DNA of 64,000 bases, from positions 62,001-126,000 of the forward strand of contig NZ_JARGEM010000003.1 of NCBI RefSeq assembly GCF_029211225.1. The letters run 5' to 3'. The notes beneath the pieces are model-generated. The model was not told the origin of the DNA and ran no database searches. It saw only the letters and a list, made by a program, of their open reading frames with translations. The position numbers and the translations under genes were made by a program. Source of the stretch: Antiquaquibacter metalliresistens. Its GTDB lineage: Bacteria > Actinomycetota > Actinomycetes > Actinomycetales > Microbacteriaceae. Below are positions 2,861-39,216 of the stretch, one piece after another (the first letter of the stretch is position 1; every line of letters starts with the position of its first letter).

Positions 2861-2940
2861 CGCACGGATTCGGGATATCCCGCACAGACTCCTGACATCC
2901 TGCACAGACTCGGGACATCCCGCACAGACTCGGGAGTTCA
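2861..2940. repeat. four 20-bp tandem repeats
   Basis: Four consecutive 20-nt units start at 2861, 2881, 2901 and 2921. Units 2 to 4 begin CGCACAGACT or TGCACAGACT; unit 1 begins CGCACGGATT. Three of the four end GACATCC or GATATCC. The last unit diverges after CACAGACTCGGGA and runs into the left arm of the palindrome at 2925-2969. There are no spacers, so this is a mini-satellite rather than a CRISPR. Confidence 0.9.
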
Positions 2941-2969
2941 AGGACGATGTCCTTGAACTCCCGAGTCTG
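2925..2969. repeat. perfect 21-bp inverted repeat with 3-nt loop
   Basis: Left arm 2925-2945 (begins CAGACTCGGGAGTTC) and right arm 2949-2969 (ends GAACTCCCGAGTCTG) are exact reverse complements around GAT. There is no T-run, so it is not a classical intrinsic terminator, although it sits between two genes whose 3' ends face each other (2806 and 3120). The left arm is the continuation of the fourth 20-bp tandem unit. Confidence 0.92.
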
Positions 2970-3760: not shown

Positions 3761-5416
3761 TCAGGACTGCGCCGCCGCCGCGCGCCCAGCGGCCCGTCCG
3801 CTGAACAGGCACCCACCGAGGAACGTGCCCTCGAGCGCGCGGTAGCCGTGCATGCCGCCGCCGCCGAAACCGCTCGCCTCACCCGCCGCGTACAGGCCGG
3901 GGATCGGCTTGCCCGCCGCGTCGAGCGCGCGCGCCTGAAGGTCGGTCTGGATGCCGCCGAGGGTCTTGCGGGTCAGCACGTGCAGGCGCACGGCGATGAG
4001 CGGTCCCGCCTTCGGATCCAGCAGCCGGTGCGGCTTGGCCACCCGGATGAGCTTGTCGCCGCGGTAGTGGCGCGCCTGCCGGATGGCGTTGATCTGGGCA
4101 TCCTTGGCGAAGTCGTTGGTGAGCTGGCCGTCGCGCGCCGCGACCTCGTGGCGCACCCGCTCGGCGTCGATCGGCACCTCGGGCGTCAGCGACTGCATCC
4201 CCGCGATGAGTTCATCGAGGGTGTCGGCGACGACGAAGTCGGCCCCGTCGGACTTGAACTTCTCGACCGGGCCCGTCGCACCCTTGCCGAGGCGCTGCTT
4301 GAGCAGTTCGCGCACGCTCTTGCCCGTGAGATCCGGGTTCTGCTCGCTGCCGGAGAGGGCGAACTCCTTCTCGATGATCGCCTGGGTGAGCACGAACCAG
4401 GTGTGGTCGTGGCCGCTGTGCCGGATGTGCTGCATCGTCGCGACGGTGTCGAAGCCGGGGAACAGTGGCGGCGGCAGGCGGTGGCCCGTGGCATCCAGCC
4501 ACAGGCTCGACGGGCCGGGGAGGATGCGGATGCCGTGGTGCGGCCAGACCGGCGAGTGGTTCTCGACACCCTCCGTGTAGGCCCACATGCGGTCGAGGTT
4601 GATGAGTTCGGCGCCGGCCTTCTCGGTGATGCGCAGCATGCGGCCGTCGGTGCTCGCAGGCACCCCGCTGAGCATGCGCTTCGGTGCAGTGCCCCAGCGC
4701 TCTGGCCACCACTCGCGCACGAGGTCGAAGTTGCCGCCGATGCCACCGGAGGTGACGATCGTCGCCCCCGCGCGCACCTCGAAGTAGCCAACGGCGTCGC
4801 GGTTGCTGGCGGCGCCGCGCTCGGCGGCATCCTGGGCGAGCACCGTGCCGCGGGCGCCGACGACCGCCCCGCCCTCGACGATGAGCTCGTCCACGCGGTG
4901 GCGGAACAGGAAGGTCACGAGCCCGCGCTCGACGCCCTCGCGCACCGCGGCCTCGAAGGGAGCGACGATGCCGGGGCCGGTGCCCCACGTGATGTGGAAG
5001 CGCGGCACCGAGTTGCCGTGGCCGGTCGCGAGCGACCCGCCGCGTTCGGCCCAGCCGACCACGGGGAAGAAGCCGACGCCGCGCTCGCGCAGCCAGGCGC
5101 GCTTCTCGCCGGCGGCGAAGTCGAGGTAGGCCTGCGCCCAACGCCTGGGCCAGGCATCCTCGTCGCGGTCGAAGGCGGCGCTGCCGAACCAGTCCTCGCG
5201 GGCCAGCTCGAAGGAGTCTTTGATGCCCATGCGGCGCTGCTCGGGGGAGTCGATGAAGAACAGCCCTCCGAACGACCACCACGCCTGACCGCCGAGGCTC
5301 GCCTCCGGCTCCTGGTCGATCACCGTCACGTGCTTGCCCGCCGCGACGAGTTCGGCGGCGGCGACGAGACCGGAGAGTCCCGCCCCGATCACGATGGCGT
5401 CAGTGCTGGTGGGCAC
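3761..5416 (-). CDS. FAD-binding dehydrogenase (FAD_binding_2 / KstD-like flavoprotein)
   Basis: 551 residues. The N-terminal dinucleotide fold is IVIGAGLSGLVAAAELVAAG followed by VIDQEPE, the acidic residue that binds the FAD ribose. The C-terminus has LYAAGEASGFGGGGMHGYRA and LEGTFLGGCLFSGRAAG, the second FAD contact of the fumarate-reductase / 3-ketosteroid-dehydrogenase superfamily. Length and blocks fit the uncharacterised actinobacterial FAD-binding dehydrogenase group. Substrate unknown; a flavin-linked alkene or ketone redox reaction in the cytoplasm is the likely class. The GTG start has GAAGGAGA at a good distance. Confidence 0.9.
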   Translation of the reverse strand: MPTSTDAIVIGAGLSGLVAAAELVAAGKHVTVIDQEPEASLGGQAWWSFGGLFFIDSPEQRRMGIKDSFELAREDWFGSAAFDRDEDAWPRRWAQAYLDFAAGEKRAWLRERGVGFFPVVGWAERGGSLATGHGNSVPRFHITWGTGPGIVAPFEAAVREGVERGLVTFLFRHRVDELIVEGGAVVGARGTVLAQDAAERGAASNRDAVGYFEVRAGATIVTSGGIGGNFDLVREWWPERWGTAPKRMLSGVPASTDGRMLRITEKAGAELINLDRMWAYTEGVENHSPVWPHHGIRILPGPSSLWLDATGHRLPPPLFPGFDTVATMQHIRHSGHDHTWFVLTQAIIEKEFALSGSEQNPDLTGKSVRELLKQRLGKGATGPVEKFKSDGADFVVADTLDELIAGMQSLTPEVPIDAERVRHEVAARDGQLTNDFAKDAQINAIRQARHYRGDKLIRVAKPHRLLDPKAGPLIAVRLHVLTRKTLGGIQTDLQARALDAAGKPIPGLYAAGEASGFGGGGMHGYRALEGTFLGGCLFSGRAAGRAAAAQS

Positions 5417-14429: not shown

Positions 14430-15050
14430 ATGCGGCACACTCCGAGCTTTCTGCTGACCGACGAGGCCGAGGTCAAGCGCCTCATCCGTGAGAACCCGTG
14501 GGCGACGATCGTCTCGAACACCGCGGCCGGCCTCGTCGCCTCCCACTACCCGGTGCTGCTCGACGAGGCCGAGTCCGACATCGTGATTCTCAGCCACGTC
14601 GGACGCCCAGACGAGCAACTGCACGAACTCGGGCAGCACGAGGTGCTCGTGATCATCCAGGGCCCGCACGGCTACATCTCGCCCGGCTGGTACGCGACGA
14701 ACGAGTTCGTGCCCACCTGGAACCACGTCACCGCGCACCTCTACGGCGTGCCCGAGTTGCTCGGCGAGGAGGAGAACTTTCGCGTGCTCGGTCGGCTCGT
14801 CGACCACTTCGAGCAACGGATGCCGCAACCGACGTCACTCGAGCTCGACGAGACGACCGCCCGCCGCGTCGCCAAGGGCACGGTCGGACTGCGATTGAAG
14901 GTCACGCGCTTCGACGCTCGCGCCAAGCTCAGCCAGAACAAGGCCCCCGACGTGGTCGCCAGGATCATCGACGAGCTGCAGTCCGGCGAGACCTACGCGA
15001 GTCCCGCCCTCGCCCGCGAGATGCGCCGCGTGCACCATGATCCTCGGTAA
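14430..15050 (+). CDS. PaiB-type FMN-binding protein
   Basis: 206 residues matching the PaiB family: an FMN-binding split barrel with IVSNTAAGLVASHYPVLL near the N-terminus, then QGPHGYISPGWYA and VPTWNHVTAHLYG, the most conserved block. Bacillus PaiB was described as a negative regulator of sporulation and protease genes, but many homologues may simply be flavin-dependent enzymes. Its 3' end overlaps the next gene's start by 14 bp, so they are probably co-expressed. Confidence 0.9.
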   Translation: MRHTPSFLLTDEAEVKRLIRENPWATIVSNTAAGLVASHYPVLLDEAESDIVILSHVGRPDEQLHELGQHEVLVIIQGPHGYISPGWYATNEFVPTWNHVTAHLYGVPELLGEEENFRVLGRLVDHFEQRMPQPTSLELDETTARRVAKGTVGLRLKVTRFDARAKLSQNKAPDVVARIIDELQSGETYASPALAREMRRVHHDPR

Positions 15051-16434
15051 CGCGCGGCTCGGCGACCGGATCGTCGACCTGCGCATCGAGGACGGGCGGA
15101 TCGCCGAGATCGGTGCGATCGGCACCGGCGACGTCGACCTTGCCGGTCGCTGGGTGATCCCCGGCCTGTGGGACGAGCACGTGCACTTCACCCAGTGGGC
15201 GCTCACCTCGCAGCGTGTCGACCTCTCGACCGCGGCATCCGCCGCCGAGGCGGCCGCGATCGTCGGGGCCGCGGGCGGCGAGGGCCTCGTGATCGGGGCG
15301 GGATTCCGCGACGGGCTCTGGCCCGACGCGCCGGGTGTCGAGCTGCTGGATGCCGCGACCGGCGCCCTCCCGGCCGTGCTCGTGAGCGCCGACCTGCACT
15401 CGGTGTGGCTCAACAGCGCCGCGCTCGAGGTGTACGGCCACCGCGGGCATCCCACCGGTCTGCTCGTGGAGGGCGACGCGTTCGACGTCGAACGCCGCCT
15501 CGGCAGCGTGCCGGTCGAGACCGTGGACGGCTGGGCTCGTGCGGCCGCCGCGGCCGCCGCACGTCGGGGCGTCGTCGGCATCGTGGACCTCGAGATGGCC
15601 TGGAACCTGGACGAGTGGCTGCGGCGCATCGCCGCCGGGCATGACGACCTGCGGGTGGAGTTCGGCGTCTACACGGACCACCTGGAGCGCGCCATCGCCG
15701 AGGGCCTTCGCACCGGCCGGCGCATCGACGCGCTGCTGACGATGGGCCGGTTCAAGGTGCTCACCGACGGGTCGCTGAACACCCGCACCGCCTACATCCA
15801 CGGCGACTACGACGACGGATCGCACGGCATGCTCACGGTGCCGCCGGAACGGCTCGTGCCGCTCATGCGTACCGCGAGCGCCGCCGGCATCGATCCGACC
15901 GTGCACGCCATCGGCGACCACGCCAACACGCTCGCGCTCGACGCCTTCCAGCGCGTGGGATGCCCCGGCCGCATCGAGCACGCCCAGCTGCTGAGCCGCG
16001 CCGACCTGCCGCGCTTCGCCGAGCTCGGCGTCGAGGTGAGCGTGCAGCCCGAGCACCTGCTCGACGATCGGGACGTCGCCGAGCGCTACTGGCCGGGCGC
16101 CACGGATCGGGCCTATCCGTTCCGCAGCCTGCTCGACGCCGGCGCGCGGCTGCGGTTCGGGTCGGATGCCCCGGTCTCCCCGCTCGACCCGTGGCTCGGC
16201 ATCGCGGCCGCGGTGGGGCGTTCACGCGGCGGACGGCAGCCGTGGCATCCCGAGCAGCGCATCACCAACGCCGAAGCGCTCGCGGCATCGGCGCGCACGC
16301 GCGTCGCGGTGGGGGAGCCGGCCGACCTCGCGGTGACCGAACGCGACCCCATCGCCGCCGATGCCGAGGCGCTGCGCACCATGCCGGTGGCGGCGACCAT
16401 GCTCGGCGGGCGGTTCACGCACACCACGCTCTGA
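15037..16434 (+). CDS. amidohydrolase (YtcJ-like metal-dependent hydrolase)
   Basis: 465 residues. The metal-binding start is WDEHVHFTQW (HxH), followed by a TIM barrel with GRFKVLTDGSLNTRTA, HAIGDHANTLAL, RIEHAQLLS and FGSDAPVSPLDPW. The last gives the catalytic Asp of the amidohydrolase superfamily. The YtcJ/AepA branch hydrolyses amides or carbamates of mostly unknown physiological substrates. The composite beta-sandwich is formed by the first ~45 and the last ~60 residues. It is translationally coupled to the PaiB-like gene. Confidence 0.9.
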   Translation: MILGNARLGDRIVDLRIEDGRIAEIGAIGTGDVDLAGRWVIPGLWDEHVHFTQWALTSQRVDLSTAASAAEAAAIVGAAGGEGLVIGAGFRDGLWPDAPGVELLDAATGALPAVLVSADLHSVWLNSAALEVYGHRGHPTGLLVEGDAFDVERRLGSVPVETVDGWARAAAAAAARRGVVGIVDLEMAWNLDEWLRRIAAGHDDLRVEFGVYTDHLERAIAEGLRTGRRIDALLTMGRFKVLTDGSLNTRTAYIHGDYDDGSHGMLTVPPERLVPLMRTASAAGIDPTVHAIGDHANTLALDAFQRVGCPGRIEHAQLLSRADLPRFAELGVEVSVQPEHLLDDRDVAERYWPGATDRAYPFRSLLDAGARLRFGSDAPVSPLDPWLGIAAAVGRSRGGRQPWHPEQRITNAEALAASARTRVAVGEPADLAVTERDPIAADAEALRTMPVAATMLGGRFTHTTL

Positions 16435-16529: not shown

Positions 16530-16587
16530 CGAGGTCGCCACGTCTGCCGCTTCTGCTCCTCAACAAGCGGCAGAAGTGGCGAACTCG
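16530..16587. repeat. 58-bp hairpin element, copy A1
   Basis: Arms 16530-16550 and 16567-16587 with a 16-nt loop. The right arm is GCGGCAGAAGTGGCGAACT plus CG; the left arm carries two mismatches to it. It has the same arm and loop lengths as copies A2 and A3. It lies between two genes read in the same direction. No T-run follows. Confidence 0.85.
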
Positions 16588-16642: not shown

Positions 16643-17545
16643 GTGCGACCATCCCCGCTGCCGACAGCCCTGCGGGGCATCCCGTTCACCGTGGGGGCGG
16701 CCGTCGAGGCCGGGGCCACGCTGCGCAGGGTACGCGCCCAGGATCTCGAGCGGTCGACCTGGGGTGTGCGACGATTCGGCCGGGCGGCCACCATCGCCGA
16801 TCGCTGCGAACTGCTCGCGACCAGGCTCAGGGATGACGCCTTCTTCAGTCACACCACCGCCGCGCTGCTGTTCGGGGTGCCGTTGCCGCCCGCGTTCGAG
16901 GGCGAACGCGACCTGCACGTCGCCATGACGGCCGCGCTTCCGACGCCCCACGCTCGAGGTATCCGTGGACATCGCCTGACGGTGAGCGCCGACGAGGTAG
17001 TGACGCACGAGCGCGTACGCTGCACGAGCGCGGCGCGCACCTGGTGCGATCTCGGCGGGATGCTGGATCTGGACGACCTCGTGGCCGCCGGCGATTTTCT
17101 GCTGCACTGGCGGTCGCCGCTCGTGGCCGAGGCGCAACTGCGCGAACAGGTGCGTCGGTTCGGCAGCGGTCGAGGGGCACGCAGACTGCGCGAGGCGCTC
17201 CCGCTCCTGAGCTCCCGTTCGGAGTCGCGACCCGAGTCGAAGGCCCGAGTGCTCGTGGTCACGTCCGGGCTTCCGGTGCCAAGCGTCAACCATTCGCTCA
17301 TCGACACGGAAACAGGGCGCGAACTTCGGCCAGATCTCATGTTCGTCGACTGCCGCGTGATCGTCGAGTATCAGGGTGAGCATCACCGCTCGCGGCAGCA
17401 GTGGCGGCGAGACATGACGAGGCGGGCCGAACTCGAAGCCCGGGGCTGGTATGTGATGGAGATCAACGCCGACGATCTGCGCGACGGCGCCGCGTTCGTC
17501 AGTCGTCTCGAGACGGTGCTGCGCCGCCGCGGATGGCGTGGCTGA
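16643..17545 (+). CDS. DUF559-type protein (restriction-endonuclease-like fold)
   Basis: 300 residues. The N-terminal half is the helical, AbiEi-like region common to this actinobacterial family (DAFFSHTTAALLFGVPLPPA). The C-terminal half has RPDLMFVDCRVIVEYQGEHH and later RRAELEARGWYVMEINADDL, the PD-(D/E)xK / Vsr-like core: D in RPDLMF, E-x-Q in EYQGEHH, and R/K on the following helix. Such proteins are abundant paralogues in Microbacteriaceae; their nuclease activity and target are not established. Start is GTG at 16643 without a clear ribosome site. Hairpin elements A1 and A2 flank the gene. Confidence 0.8.
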   Translation: MRPSPLPTALRGIPFTVGAAVEAGATLRRVRAQDLERSTWGVRRFGRAATIADRCELLATRLRDDAFFSHTTAALLFGVPLPPAFEGERDLHVAMTAALPTPHARGIRGHRLTVSADEVVTHERVRCTSAARTWCDLGGMLDLDDLVAAGDFLLHWRSPLVAEAQLREQVRRFGSGRGARRLREALPLLSSRSESRPESKARVLVVTSGLPVPSVNHSLIDTETGRELRPDLMFVDCRVIVEYQGEHHRSRQQWRRDMTRRAELEARGWYVMEINADDLRDGAAFVSRLETVLRRRGWRG

Positions 17546-17567: not shown

Positions 17568-17625
17568 CGAGTTCGCCACTTCTGCCGCGTGCTGGATGGA
17601 CGAGGCGGCAGAAGTGGCGAACTCG
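17568..17625. repeat. 58-bp hairpin element, copy A2
   Basis: Perfect 21-bp arms 17568-17588 (begins CGAGTTCGCCACTTCTG) and 17605-17625, with a 16-nt loop at 17589-17604. It lies between the convergent DUF559 and dps genes. Confidence 0.93.
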
Positions 17626-17666: not shown

Positions 17667-18155
17667 CTACTTCGTCGCGACGTGCGCGAAGAGGAACCAG
17701 CGATCCTTCTCGAGGCCGCGCGCGATCTCGATGGCAACATCCTGGCTCACCGGGTCGAGCTCCGCGAGCTCGGTCACCGCGGTGCGCACCGTGACGAGGG
17801 TGGCGTCGATCGCGGCGATGACCTCGGTGATCACCTGGTCGGAGCGCTGGAAGCCCGCCGTCATCTTCGGCGTGGTGGCCTTCGAACCGACGGTCTGGAT
17901 GCGGGCGTCGATGGGCAACCCGAGGGCGACGACGCGCTCGGCGGCCGTGTCGGCGTAGTCGCGGGCGTTGGCGACGACCACGTCGAGCAGCTCGTGCACG
18001 GCCTGGAAGTTCTCGCCGCGCACGTGCCAGTGCGCCTGCTTGCCGTCGACGGAGAGCGCGGTGAGGTCGGTGACCACCGGACCGAGGAACTGCGCAACGC
18101 CCGAGGTCACGTCCGGGTCTGCCGAGGTCTGGGGGACTGCCTTGACTTCACTCAT
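17667..18155 (-). CDS. dps: Dps-family DNA-binding ferritin-like protein
   Basis: 162 residues from the ATG at 18155, which has GAAGGAG 8 nt upstream; an earlier in-frame ATG lacks a ribosome site. The block AHWHVRGENFQAVHELLD contains the His and later Asp/Glu of the intersubunit ferroxidase centre of Dps. The rest is a four-helix bundle. It stores iron, quenches peroxide and protects DNA in stress. A candidate promoter reads TTGCGG, 16 nt, TAGCGT (18213-18185 on this strand). It is divergent from the two-component operon. Confidence 0.93.
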   Translation of the reverse strand: MSEVKAVPQTSADPDVTSGVAQFLGPVVTDLTALSVDGKQAHWHVRGENFQAVHELLDVVVANARDYADTAAERVVALGLPIDARIQTVGSKATTPKMTAGFQRSDQVITEVIAAIDATLVTVRTAVTELAELDPVSQDVAIEIARGLEKDRWFLFAHVATK

Positions 18156-18221
18156 GTGTTGTACTCCTTCTTCCGTCGGGTTCAACGCTACAAGCGGCGG
18201 GGAATTCCGCAACAGAGGGTT

Positions 18222-31334: not shown

Positions 31335-31392
31335 CGAGTTCGCCAGTTCTGTCGCCTCGAGCGCGCCAGAAGCGGCAGAACTGGCGAACTCG
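31335..31392. repeat. 58-bp hairpin element, copy A3
   Basis: Arms 31335-31355 and 31372-31392 (one mismatch), 16-nt loop. Arm sequence CGAGTTCGCCAGTTCTG. It lies between two divergent genes, so it cannot be a terminator for either. Confidence 0.9.
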
Positions 31393-38211: not shown

Positions 38212-38284
38212 CCATTCGGGAGGATGACACGCCGCCTCGCCGCGCCTGCGGCGGGCGCGAGCGGCGCGTCATCCTCCCGAATGG
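38212..38284. repeat. 73-bp hairpin element, copy B1
   Basis: 24-bp arms 38212-38235 and 38261-38284 with one mismatch (arm CCATTCGGGAGGATGACACG plus four bases). The 25-nt loop has its own CGCCGC/GCGGCG stem. It lies between convergent tig and the membrane-protein gene. Confidence 0.9.
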
Positions 38285-38303
38285 CGTTCGGGGGATGCCC
38301 CGG

Positions 38304-39122
38304 CTATGCCGTCGGCTGGCCCTTTCCCAGCCTGAAGAACCAGTTCGCCAACGCCGTGCGACGGGTGGGCGAGAACAGCACCAGCCCGACCAGCACGATG
38401 TTCGCGATCGTGGCCAGGGCCGCGAGCAGGGTGGGGATCGCGGTGATCGTGGGCGCATCCGTCACCCCGATGAGGCCGACGGCCGCCACGAAGTAGAGCG
38501 GATGCGACCACGGCAGCCCGAGCACGACGAGCGCCCAGGTCTGCGGGCCGCCGATCGCCCCCGCGCCGTCGCTGAGGTCGACGCCGATGAACGGCGAGGC
38601 GATCGCGAACATGAGCGCGGCGACGGCGACCACGAGGTAGGTGAGCGCGGCGGCGCGCGCCCACTGCGGCAGCACGGCCGACTCCAGTCGCGGCACCGCC
38701 CCCGGCCGCAGGTGGCGGGCCAGCGCCGAGACGAACAGCGCGATCGACAGCAGGGCGATCACCGCGCCGAAGGCGAGTGCGGACGCACCGATGACGCCGA
38801 ACGCGAGCAGCACGATCCAGATCACGAGCAGGCCCTCCAGGCTCGCGAGCATGATCGAGATCGGGCGCGTGGCGACGCCGGAGGCGAGGGTCTGCGGATG
38901 ACGCAGCAGCAGCCATCCGTTCAGCGTCATCGATCCCAGCAGCACGAAGCAGTACACCGCCACGACGAGCGCCGCGATGCCGTCGCTGCCACCGCCGAGC
39001 GCCTCGCGCAGCAGCGCCCCAGACACACCCGTGACGGCGGCGATCACCGGCAGCAGCAGCGCCGGCACGACGCTGGCGAGCATCGCGCGGTCGAACAGGG
39101 CAGCGGGCTGGGGCTCGGTCAT
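38304..39122 (-). CDS. polytopic membrane protein of unknown function
   Basis: 272 residues with about seven to eight hydrophobic segments, no known motif. The ATG at 39122 lies 7 nt after TAGGGT, so it is near-leaderless; I prefer it to a longer start that would run through the hairpin. Hairpin elements B1 and B2 flank the gene on both sides. It separates tig from clpP1 and is read on the other strand, an insertion into an otherwise conserved tig-clpP neighbourhood. Function unknown. Confidence 0.75.
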   Translation of the reverse strand: MTEPQPAALFDRAMLASVVPALLLPVIAAVTGVSGALLREALGGGSDGIAALVVAVYCFVLLGSMTLNGWLLLRHPQTLASGVATRPISIMLASLEGLLVIWIVLLAFGVIGASALAFGAVIALLSIALFVSALARHLRPGAVPRLESAVLPQWARAAALTYLVVAVAALMFAIASPFIGVDLSDGAGAIGGPQTWALVVLGLPWSHPLYFVAAVGLIGVTDAPTITAIPTLLAALATIANIVLVGLVLFSPTRRTALANWFFRLGKGQPTA

Positions 39123-39142
39123 GCCCCACACCCTAGTGCTCG

Positions 39143-39216
39143 ACCATTCGGGAGGACGACGCGCCGTCGCGCGGCGCCTTCGGCGCTCCGCGCGGCGTGT
39201 CGTCCTCCCGAATGGT
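39143..39216. repeat. 74-bp hairpin element, copy B2
   Basis: 24-bp arms 39143-39166 and 39193-39216 with one mismatch, inner CGCGGCGCC/GGCGCTCCGCG stem. It shares the ACCATTCGGGAGGA..GACRCGCCG arm with B1. It lies between divergent genes and overlaps the -35 region expected for the gene at 39122. Confidence 0.9.

What the first reader, a model, noticed from the sequence alone, without database searches (positions are those of the whole stretch)
16530..16587. A 58-bp hairpin element repeats three times with identical geometry
Copies at 16530-16587, 17568-17625 and 31335-31392 all have two 21-nt arms and exactly 16 nt of loop. Arms are GAGTTCGCCASTTCTG plus flanks; loops are unrelated in sequence. 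The arms match across copies while loops vary, which means the arms are under selection or the element spreads as a unit. Copy A3 lies between divergent promoters, so the element is not simply a terminator.
Basis: seen in the sequence. Interest (0 to 1): 0.78.

Follow-up and report, generated by a model that had tools for sequence, protein, structure and literature searches.

The report
Nuclease genes bracketed by private palindromes
The repeated hairpin is one of many short palindromes that bracket genes for a homing-type DNA-cutting enzyme and lie scattered around actinobacterial genomes, which looks like a so far unrecognised kind of mobile element.

Summary
Three 58-bp palindromes (21-16-21) lie at the given places, and the genome has two more. 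Two of the three bracket a 300-aa DUF559 gene (16643-17545). Its predicted fold is an AbiEi-like N-terminal half joined to a Vsr/I-Bth0305I-type (EDxHD homing) nuclease. Among 77 homologues with full flanks, 44 share a palindrome on both sides of the gene, against 0 of 437 random segments and 0 of 600 swapped flanks. Arms differ between lineages but match within a unit, and paralogues in one genome have different palindromes. Cognate palindromes are dispersed: 35 sites in one Microbacterium, 16-23 in four Cryobacterium genomes, unit flanks included. Presence varies between related genomes, and one unit locus is a solo palindrome in two relatives. Arms do not covary and spacing is fixed, so they look like paired protein half-sites rather than an RNA stem. 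Best reading: non-autonomous palindromes spread by their partner nuclease. This works like REPIN-RAYT, with an unrelated enzyme. Binding, cleavage and mobility are inferred, not shown. Ten searches of open-access papers found no description.

The parts
16530..16587 (.). palindrome A1, 58 bp (21-16-21, 19/21 matched), 55 bp upstream of the nuclease gene
16643..17545 (+). DUF559 nuclease gene (GTG start, 300 aa): AbiEi-like N-terminal part (about residues 1-190) and Vsr/EDxHD-type nuclease (about 195-298)
17568..17625 (.). palindrome A2, 58 bp, perfect arms, 22 bp downstream of the nuclease stop codon
31335..31392 (.). solo palindrome A3, 58 bp, between divergently read genes
15037..16434 (+). 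amidohydrolase gene, left neighbour of the unit; in nine of 13 relatives examined its stop lies 3-230 bp from the Dps-like gene, with no unit between
17667..18212 (-). Dps/ferritin-like gene, right (convergent) neighbour of the unit

Best explanation
Each palindrome is a pair of inverted half-sites, with fixed spacing, for the DUF559 nuclease whose gene it brackets. SHOWN by sequence: gene and palindromes form a unit; nuclease lineages have their own arm sequences; other copies of the same palindrome are dispersed; unit and solo copies are present in some relatives and absent in others. INFERRED: one part of the protein (perhaps the AbiEi-like half) binds the arms, and the Vsr/EDxHD half nicks or cuts DNA at or next to a palindrome, probably as a dimer. 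Host repair or replication then copies the palindrome to new, mostly 3'-intergenic places, and now and then the whole 1.1-kb unit. Solo palindromes are thus non-autonomous passengers, as REPINs are of RAYTs, but the partner is a hydrolytic homing-type nuclease. Once settled, some copies may serve the host as 3'-end structures.
Against: No binding, cleavage or movement was observed. No clean insertion junction or target-site duplication was found; junctions are diverged. The two palindromes of a unit have no fixed relative orientation (21 inverted, 22 direct, 2 ties of 45). The arm-protein correlation is weak (rho 0.15 for the N-domain, 0.22 for the C-domain), and the N-domain, which I suppose to bind, correlates less. 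Many units sit at the same locus in several species, which fits vertical descent as well as movement. At two sites loss in G612 explains the pattern as well as gain elsewhere. G671 and G672 keep palindromes without the cognate gene, so copies persist without it. REPINs show common compensatory changes (PMC3116915, passages); these palindromes do not. 33 of 77 homologues fall below the threshold; some of those matches were truncated, others (Rhodococcus, Bifidobacterium) may really lack palindromes.
Confidence: 0.58

Rival explanations
1. Operator model: the AbiEi-like domain represses its own gene by binding the flanking palindromes, and dispersed copies are a regulon; nothing moves.
For: AbiEi fold in the N-terminal half and a PADLOC AbiEi match (E 5.9e-9); a palindrome lies upstream of the gene; that AbiEi binds inverted repeats is recalled, not from a call.
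Against: The second palindrome lies downstream of the gene. Of 33 sites in G438, 16 lie between convergent genes and 0 between divergent ones, the wrong place for operators; in other genomes a few are divergent (3 of 13 in G023, 1 of 5 in G000, 2 of 11 in G024 and G014). It does not explain dispersal, local clusters or presence/absence.
Confidence: 0.16
2. Bidirectional terminators or 3'-end stabilisers that duplicate by ordinary recombination; the nuclease gene is merely insulated by them.
For: Strong folding; 16 convergent versus 0 divergent of 33 sites in G438 and 8 versus 3 of 13 in G023, against 51:47 for ordinary gaps in Microbacterium. Three unit-free relatives (G003, G014, G019) have unrelated inverted repeats between the same two genes, and G016 a terminator-like one, by eye.
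Against: T-runs are absent (TTTT in 0 of 62, 1 of 30 and 0 of 10 flanks). Pairing is not maintained by compensatory change. A terminator role does not predict a private palindrome per nuclease lineage.
Confidence: 0.16
3. Classical MITE/IS pair: the unit is a transposon with palindromic terminal inverted repeats and solo copies are MITEs or solo ends.
For: Gene between two like ends, lineage-specific occurrence at the window locus, unit-to-solo replacement.
Against: Ends have no consistent inverted orientation; no target-site duplication seen; the listed structural matches are Vsr-type nucleases and AbiEi, not transposases (a second look at Foldseek's own matches only).
Confidence: 0.07
4. Defence or DNA-repair role: a Vsr-like nuclease acting on foreign or mismatched DNA, with the palindromes as self-marks or regulatory sites.
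For: Vsr-like fold; weak restriction and homing-nuclease matches in PADLOC for one of four proteins each (E 0.015 and 0.036).
Against: The neighbours examined in the window include no methyltransferase or AbiEii. No match in 50,697 phage records and three distant plasmid hits neither support nor exclude it.
Confidence: 0.03

Closest known systems
REPINs / REP sequences with RAYT (TnpA_REP)
   Same: short dispersed extragenic palindromes with conserved ends and a variable centre, and a partner endonuclease gene associated with the repeats (PMC3116915, passages; the rest recalled)
   Different: partner is not a HUH tyrosine transposase but a Vsr/EDxHD-type nuclease with an AbiEi-like half; compensatory changes, called common in REPINs in that paper, are not seen here; end tag is mostly (C)GAG
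EDxHD homing endonucleases (I-Bth0305I)
   Different: no intron or intein seen; AbiEi-like half instead of phage-type DNA-binding domains; partner is a dispersed palindrome
AbiE type IV toxin-antitoxin (AbiEi)
   Different: no AbiEii toxin among the neighbours examined in the window; fused to a nuclease
CGTC-tagged REPs without a transposase
   Same: palindromic repeats for which PMC3733652 (passages) reports no linked transposase gene
   Different: the main text of that paper has no occurrence of 'actinobacteri'; whether those repeats have a DUF559 partner was not tested

Membership tests
REPIN-RAYT | dispersed short extragenic palindrome with fixed length and variable centre | tested here: met
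REPIN-RAYT | partner gene bracketed by the same repeat | tested here: met
REPIN-RAYT | partner is a HUH/Y1 transposase | tested here: not met
   Pfam DUF559; Vsr/EDxHD and AbiEi folds over most of the protein
REPIN-RAYT | compensatory changes across the hairpin | tested here: not met
   two families
REPIN-RAYT | GTAG or CGTC end tag | tested here: inconclusive
   CGAG dominates, 67 of 180 ends vs 12.3 in shuffles; CGTC 33 vs 15.7; GTAG not counted on its own
EDxHD/Vsr-like nuclease | catalytic fold and conserved acidic/His residues | tested here: met
EDxHD homing endonuclease | proven cleavage of its target site and homing | not testable with these tools
AbiE toxin-antitoxin | AbiEi-like fold | tested here: met
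AbiE toxin-antitoxin | adjacent AbiEii toxin gene | tested here: not met
   neighbours are an amidohydrolase and a Dps-like gene; only the window copy was checked
IS/MITE | terminal inverted repeats in fixed inverted orientation | tested here: not met
   21 inverted, 22 direct, 2 ties of 45
IS/MITE | target-site duplication | tested here: inconclusive
   junctions diverged
intrinsic terminator | GC stem followed by a T-run | tested here: not met
   searches found none but only test loops of 3-8 nt
structured RNA | compensatory base changes in the stem | tested here: not met
   84.0% cells paired vs 85.0% shuffled; 84.8% vs 86.3%; no Rfam match at the palindromes at gathering threshold

The most novel reading that the evidence does not exclude
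Actinobacteria have a second, independently evolved REPIN-like system. A fused AbiEi-Vsr (DUF559) nuclease and its private palindrome co-evolve as a pair, and the palindrome is copied round the genome by homing-type cutting and repair, probably with the nuclease gene under a DnaA-box-like promoter element. Many DUF559 genes of Microbacteriaceae would then be drivers of selfish palindromes.
Probability: 0.48. Interest if true: 0.9.

Novelty: categorically new. Interest (0 to 1): 0.82.

Why it matters
Short palindromic repeats in bacteria are linked in the literature I saw to one mobiliser class, the HUH-type RAYTs. A non-homologous partner, from the Vsr/homing-nuclease lineage with a toxin-antitoxin-like half, would show that the arrangement evolved twice. 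It would also suggest a function for a domain of unknown function. Because paralogues have their own palindromes, it offers many natural protein-site pairs for studying DNA recognition.

Tried and rejected
Terminator-only and RNA-structure readings: weakened by absent T-runs and absent covariation. Consistent terminal inverted repeats: suggested at first by the G022 and G024 units, then rejected on 45 units. Exact pattern for the Microbacterium palindrome in 398 family genomes: 0 hits. This is uninformative, because the pattern demanded near-perfect arms; a covariance model later found 35 sites in one Microbacterium. A DNA query from a poorly conserved Microbacterium region matched 5 of 59 genomes, the query's own included, otherwise with short matches only. 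Cryobacterium empty site: palindrome absent in L085, but the spacer is too variable to read a junction. Vectors: none in phage records, three Arthrobacter plasmid hits at 31-36%. Third palindrome family in the window (38212-39216): two overlapping ORFs between its copies have no Pfam match, and the own-genome second DUF559 gene does not carry it. Hairpin label on the protein tree is not clustered (20 changes, shuffled mean 20.6). Decay of palindromes in gene-less G671/G672 was not tested formally. The DnaA-box-like motif is absent from the window copy. Papers: ten searches. Of the 14 papers naming DUF559 I saw only the listing and abstract starts, none of which concerns palindromes linked to the gene. 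No paper was read in full; passages only of PMC3733652, PMC3943268 and PMC3116915. That nothing is in print is therefore limited to this open-access library and these terms.

Full report
OBSERVATION. The core pattern is far above chance (6 against 0.87 expected, 0 of 100 shuffles). Arms match 19, 21 and 20 of 21. An exact pattern found one more copy in the genome, and a covariance model (R1) found five strong sites: three here, C30:37646 and C12:320120, plus three weak ones. The C30 copy lies about 50 bp 3' of a tRNA-Leu gene and has a loop like A3's.

THE GENE BETWEEN. A1 and A2 bracket one gene, 16643-17545, with Pfam DUF559 (E 3e-5) and a sub-threshold MTES_1575 match. In relatives found with R1 (10 of 60 genomes at E<=0.01, the window's own included), pairs of palindromes about 1 kb apart again enclose a homologue: L031, L032 and L046. 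One pair (L047) encloses an unrelated gene. Thirteen of 27 genus genomes have no homologue at E<=1e-20; among these R1 found one weak site, in G008. R1 knows only this arm type, so this is a limited test.

HOW GENERAL. I fetched the best 80 of 90 homologues from public genomes and scored whether a palindrome is shared by the two flanks. Of 81 including the window, 77 had flanks of at least 200 bp; four were dropped before the count. 44 of 77 score >=14, against 0 of 437 random segments of the same loci and 0 of 600 swapped flank pairs; at >=12 it is 49/77, 11/437 and 3/600 (threshold chosen with the controls in view). Palindrome-bearing units are spread over the protein tree: Microbacteriaceae, Ruania, Flexivirga, one Rhodococcus, one Blastococcus and one unassigned actinobacterium (70 of 81 proteins, ten shorter than 225 aa and one with a stop left out). 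Within the genus, one search lists 46 matches and gave loci for 30. I scored 28 of these (two halves of a split gene left out): 19 pass the same threshold, and paralogues in one genome have different palindromes. The own genome's second homologue (C12:12897) has its own palindrome, and the weak R1 hit at C33:49002 is a solo copy of that one.

CO-DIVERGENCE. Across 45 units, arms are shared (score >=9; 13 of 400 with shuffled arms) in 8 of 8 protein pairs with N-domain identity >=60%, 6 of 11 at 50-60%, 29 of 154 at 40-50%, 47 of 604 at 30-40% and 8 of 213 below 30%. The overall correlation is weak: rho 0.15 (N-domain, 9 of 500 permutations as high) and 0.22 (C-domain, 0 of 500). The outer ends share a (C)GAG tag: 67 of 180 ends against 12.3 in shuffles, 30 of 45 units (related units are not independent).

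DISPERSAL. Counted from the tables, distinct sites, unit flanks included, are 35, 25 and 8 in Microbacterium G438, G439 and G440 (E<=0.001) and 16, 23, 21 and 23 in Cryobacterium G499-G502 (E<=1e-5). At most 150 candidates per genome were scored, so these are lower bounds. In the two genomes where I counted it, copies cluster near the unit: in G438, 3 of 33 other sites lie within 20 kb (about 0.4 expected); in G500, 4 of 21 (about 0.2 expected). Local duplication could add to this.

PRESENCE AND ABSENCE. Of 15 genus genomes read at the unit locus of G023, seven are occupied (G006, G014, G019, G021, G022, G023, G024) with arms that mostly differ from genome to genome (G022 and G024 share TGTTCCGAT). 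Seven are empty (G000, G005, G012, G015, G016, G025, G026), and G003 has other sequence there. The window's locus between amidohydrolase and Dps genes has no unit in nine of 13 relatives (gaps 3-230 bp, some with unrelated inverted repeats). Three others (G021, G022, G024) have 0.8-1.2 kb of other sequence, and G006 could not be read. In Microbacterium, of 13 G438 sites compared, two are absent in G612 (flanks 94/90% and 98/96%); one of them is also absent in the more distant G569 and G800. Five (1291233, 1293592, 932836, 724760, 1454666) are kept in every relative with both anchors, which for two of them is a single relative. The two unit sites are read as the unit in G612 and G439, and the other four could not be read cleanly. 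At the unit locus G671 and G672 have one solo palindrome instead of the 1.17-1.20 kb unit of G438, G612 and G439; they also have a palindrome where G438 and G612 have none. G671 and G672 hold no close copy of the gene (best 43%), yet keep several palindromes.

WHAT THE PALINDROME IS. In 31 of 35 G438 copies (one duplicate, one of other length and two not fetched were left out) and 15 G023 copies, the alignments need no gaps. Variable arm positions do not covary beyond shuffles, and T-runs are absent. This fits two inverted protein half-sites at fixed spacing better than a selected RNA stem. Sites in G438 lie 16 between convergent, 14 between co-directional and 0 between divergent genes, with 3 in a called ORF, of 33. 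Gaps >=60 bp in 20-kb Microbacterium regions give 51 convergent, 56 co-directional and 47 divergent. In G023 the counts are 8 convergent, 2 co-directional and 3 divergent of 13; in G000 2 co-directional, 1 divergent and 2 in a called ORF of 5; in G024 and G014 together 4, 4 and 2, with 1 in an ORF, of 11 (crude gene caller).

PROMOTER ELEMENT. TGTGGA lies within 200 bp upstream in 50 of 80 homologues, 1 of 80 downstream, and 14 of 343 neighbour genes. The fuller TGTGGAYAA is in 15 of 80 against 0 downstream. It resembles a DnaA box (recalled, no call). The window copy lacks it.

MECHANISM AND LIMITS. I favour a homing-like spread of non-autonomous palindromes by their partner nuclease. Binding, cutting, copying and any role of DnaA are inferred. 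Shared loci across species, unfixed orientation, the weak arm-protein correlation and the lack of a readable junction stand against a simple transposon or a simple one-to-one code. Membership in REPIN-RAYT fails on the enzyme. The analogy in architecture stands. On checking I lowered the best-explanation confidence from 0.60 to 0.58 and the novel case from 0.50 to 0.48, because the N-domain correlates less with the arms than the C-domain, and the no-covariation result also differs from REPINs.

Noticed in passing
window 38212-38284 and 39143-39216: A second palindrome family (core TTCGGGAGGAYGACRCGCCG, 25-26 nt between arms) lies on both sides of a stretch whose ORFs have no Pfam match; its partner nuclease, if any, was not found.
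   Followed up: partly
upstream of DUF559 genes in L071-L150: DnaA-box-like TGTGGA element within 200 bp upstream of the gene in 50 of 80 homologues against 14 of 343 neighbour genes.
   Followed up: partly
L003:1376-1558: The fourth copy of the palindrome (1495-1558 with flanks) lies about 50 bp 3' of a tRNA-Leu gene (1376-1450).
   Followed up: partly
L088:1480-1860: Cryobacterium spacer carries another repeat-like sequence (GTGGTCGAGCCTGTCGAGACC type) beside the palindrome.
   Followed up: no
window 2905-2969: Perfect 21-nt inverted repeat with a 3-nt loop (2925-2969), preceded by a partial further copy of the arm at 2905.
   Followed up: no
L234:901-966 and 4139-4204: Two identical G438 palindromes 3.2 kb apart with the same flanking bases, apparently from a duplication.
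   Followed up: no
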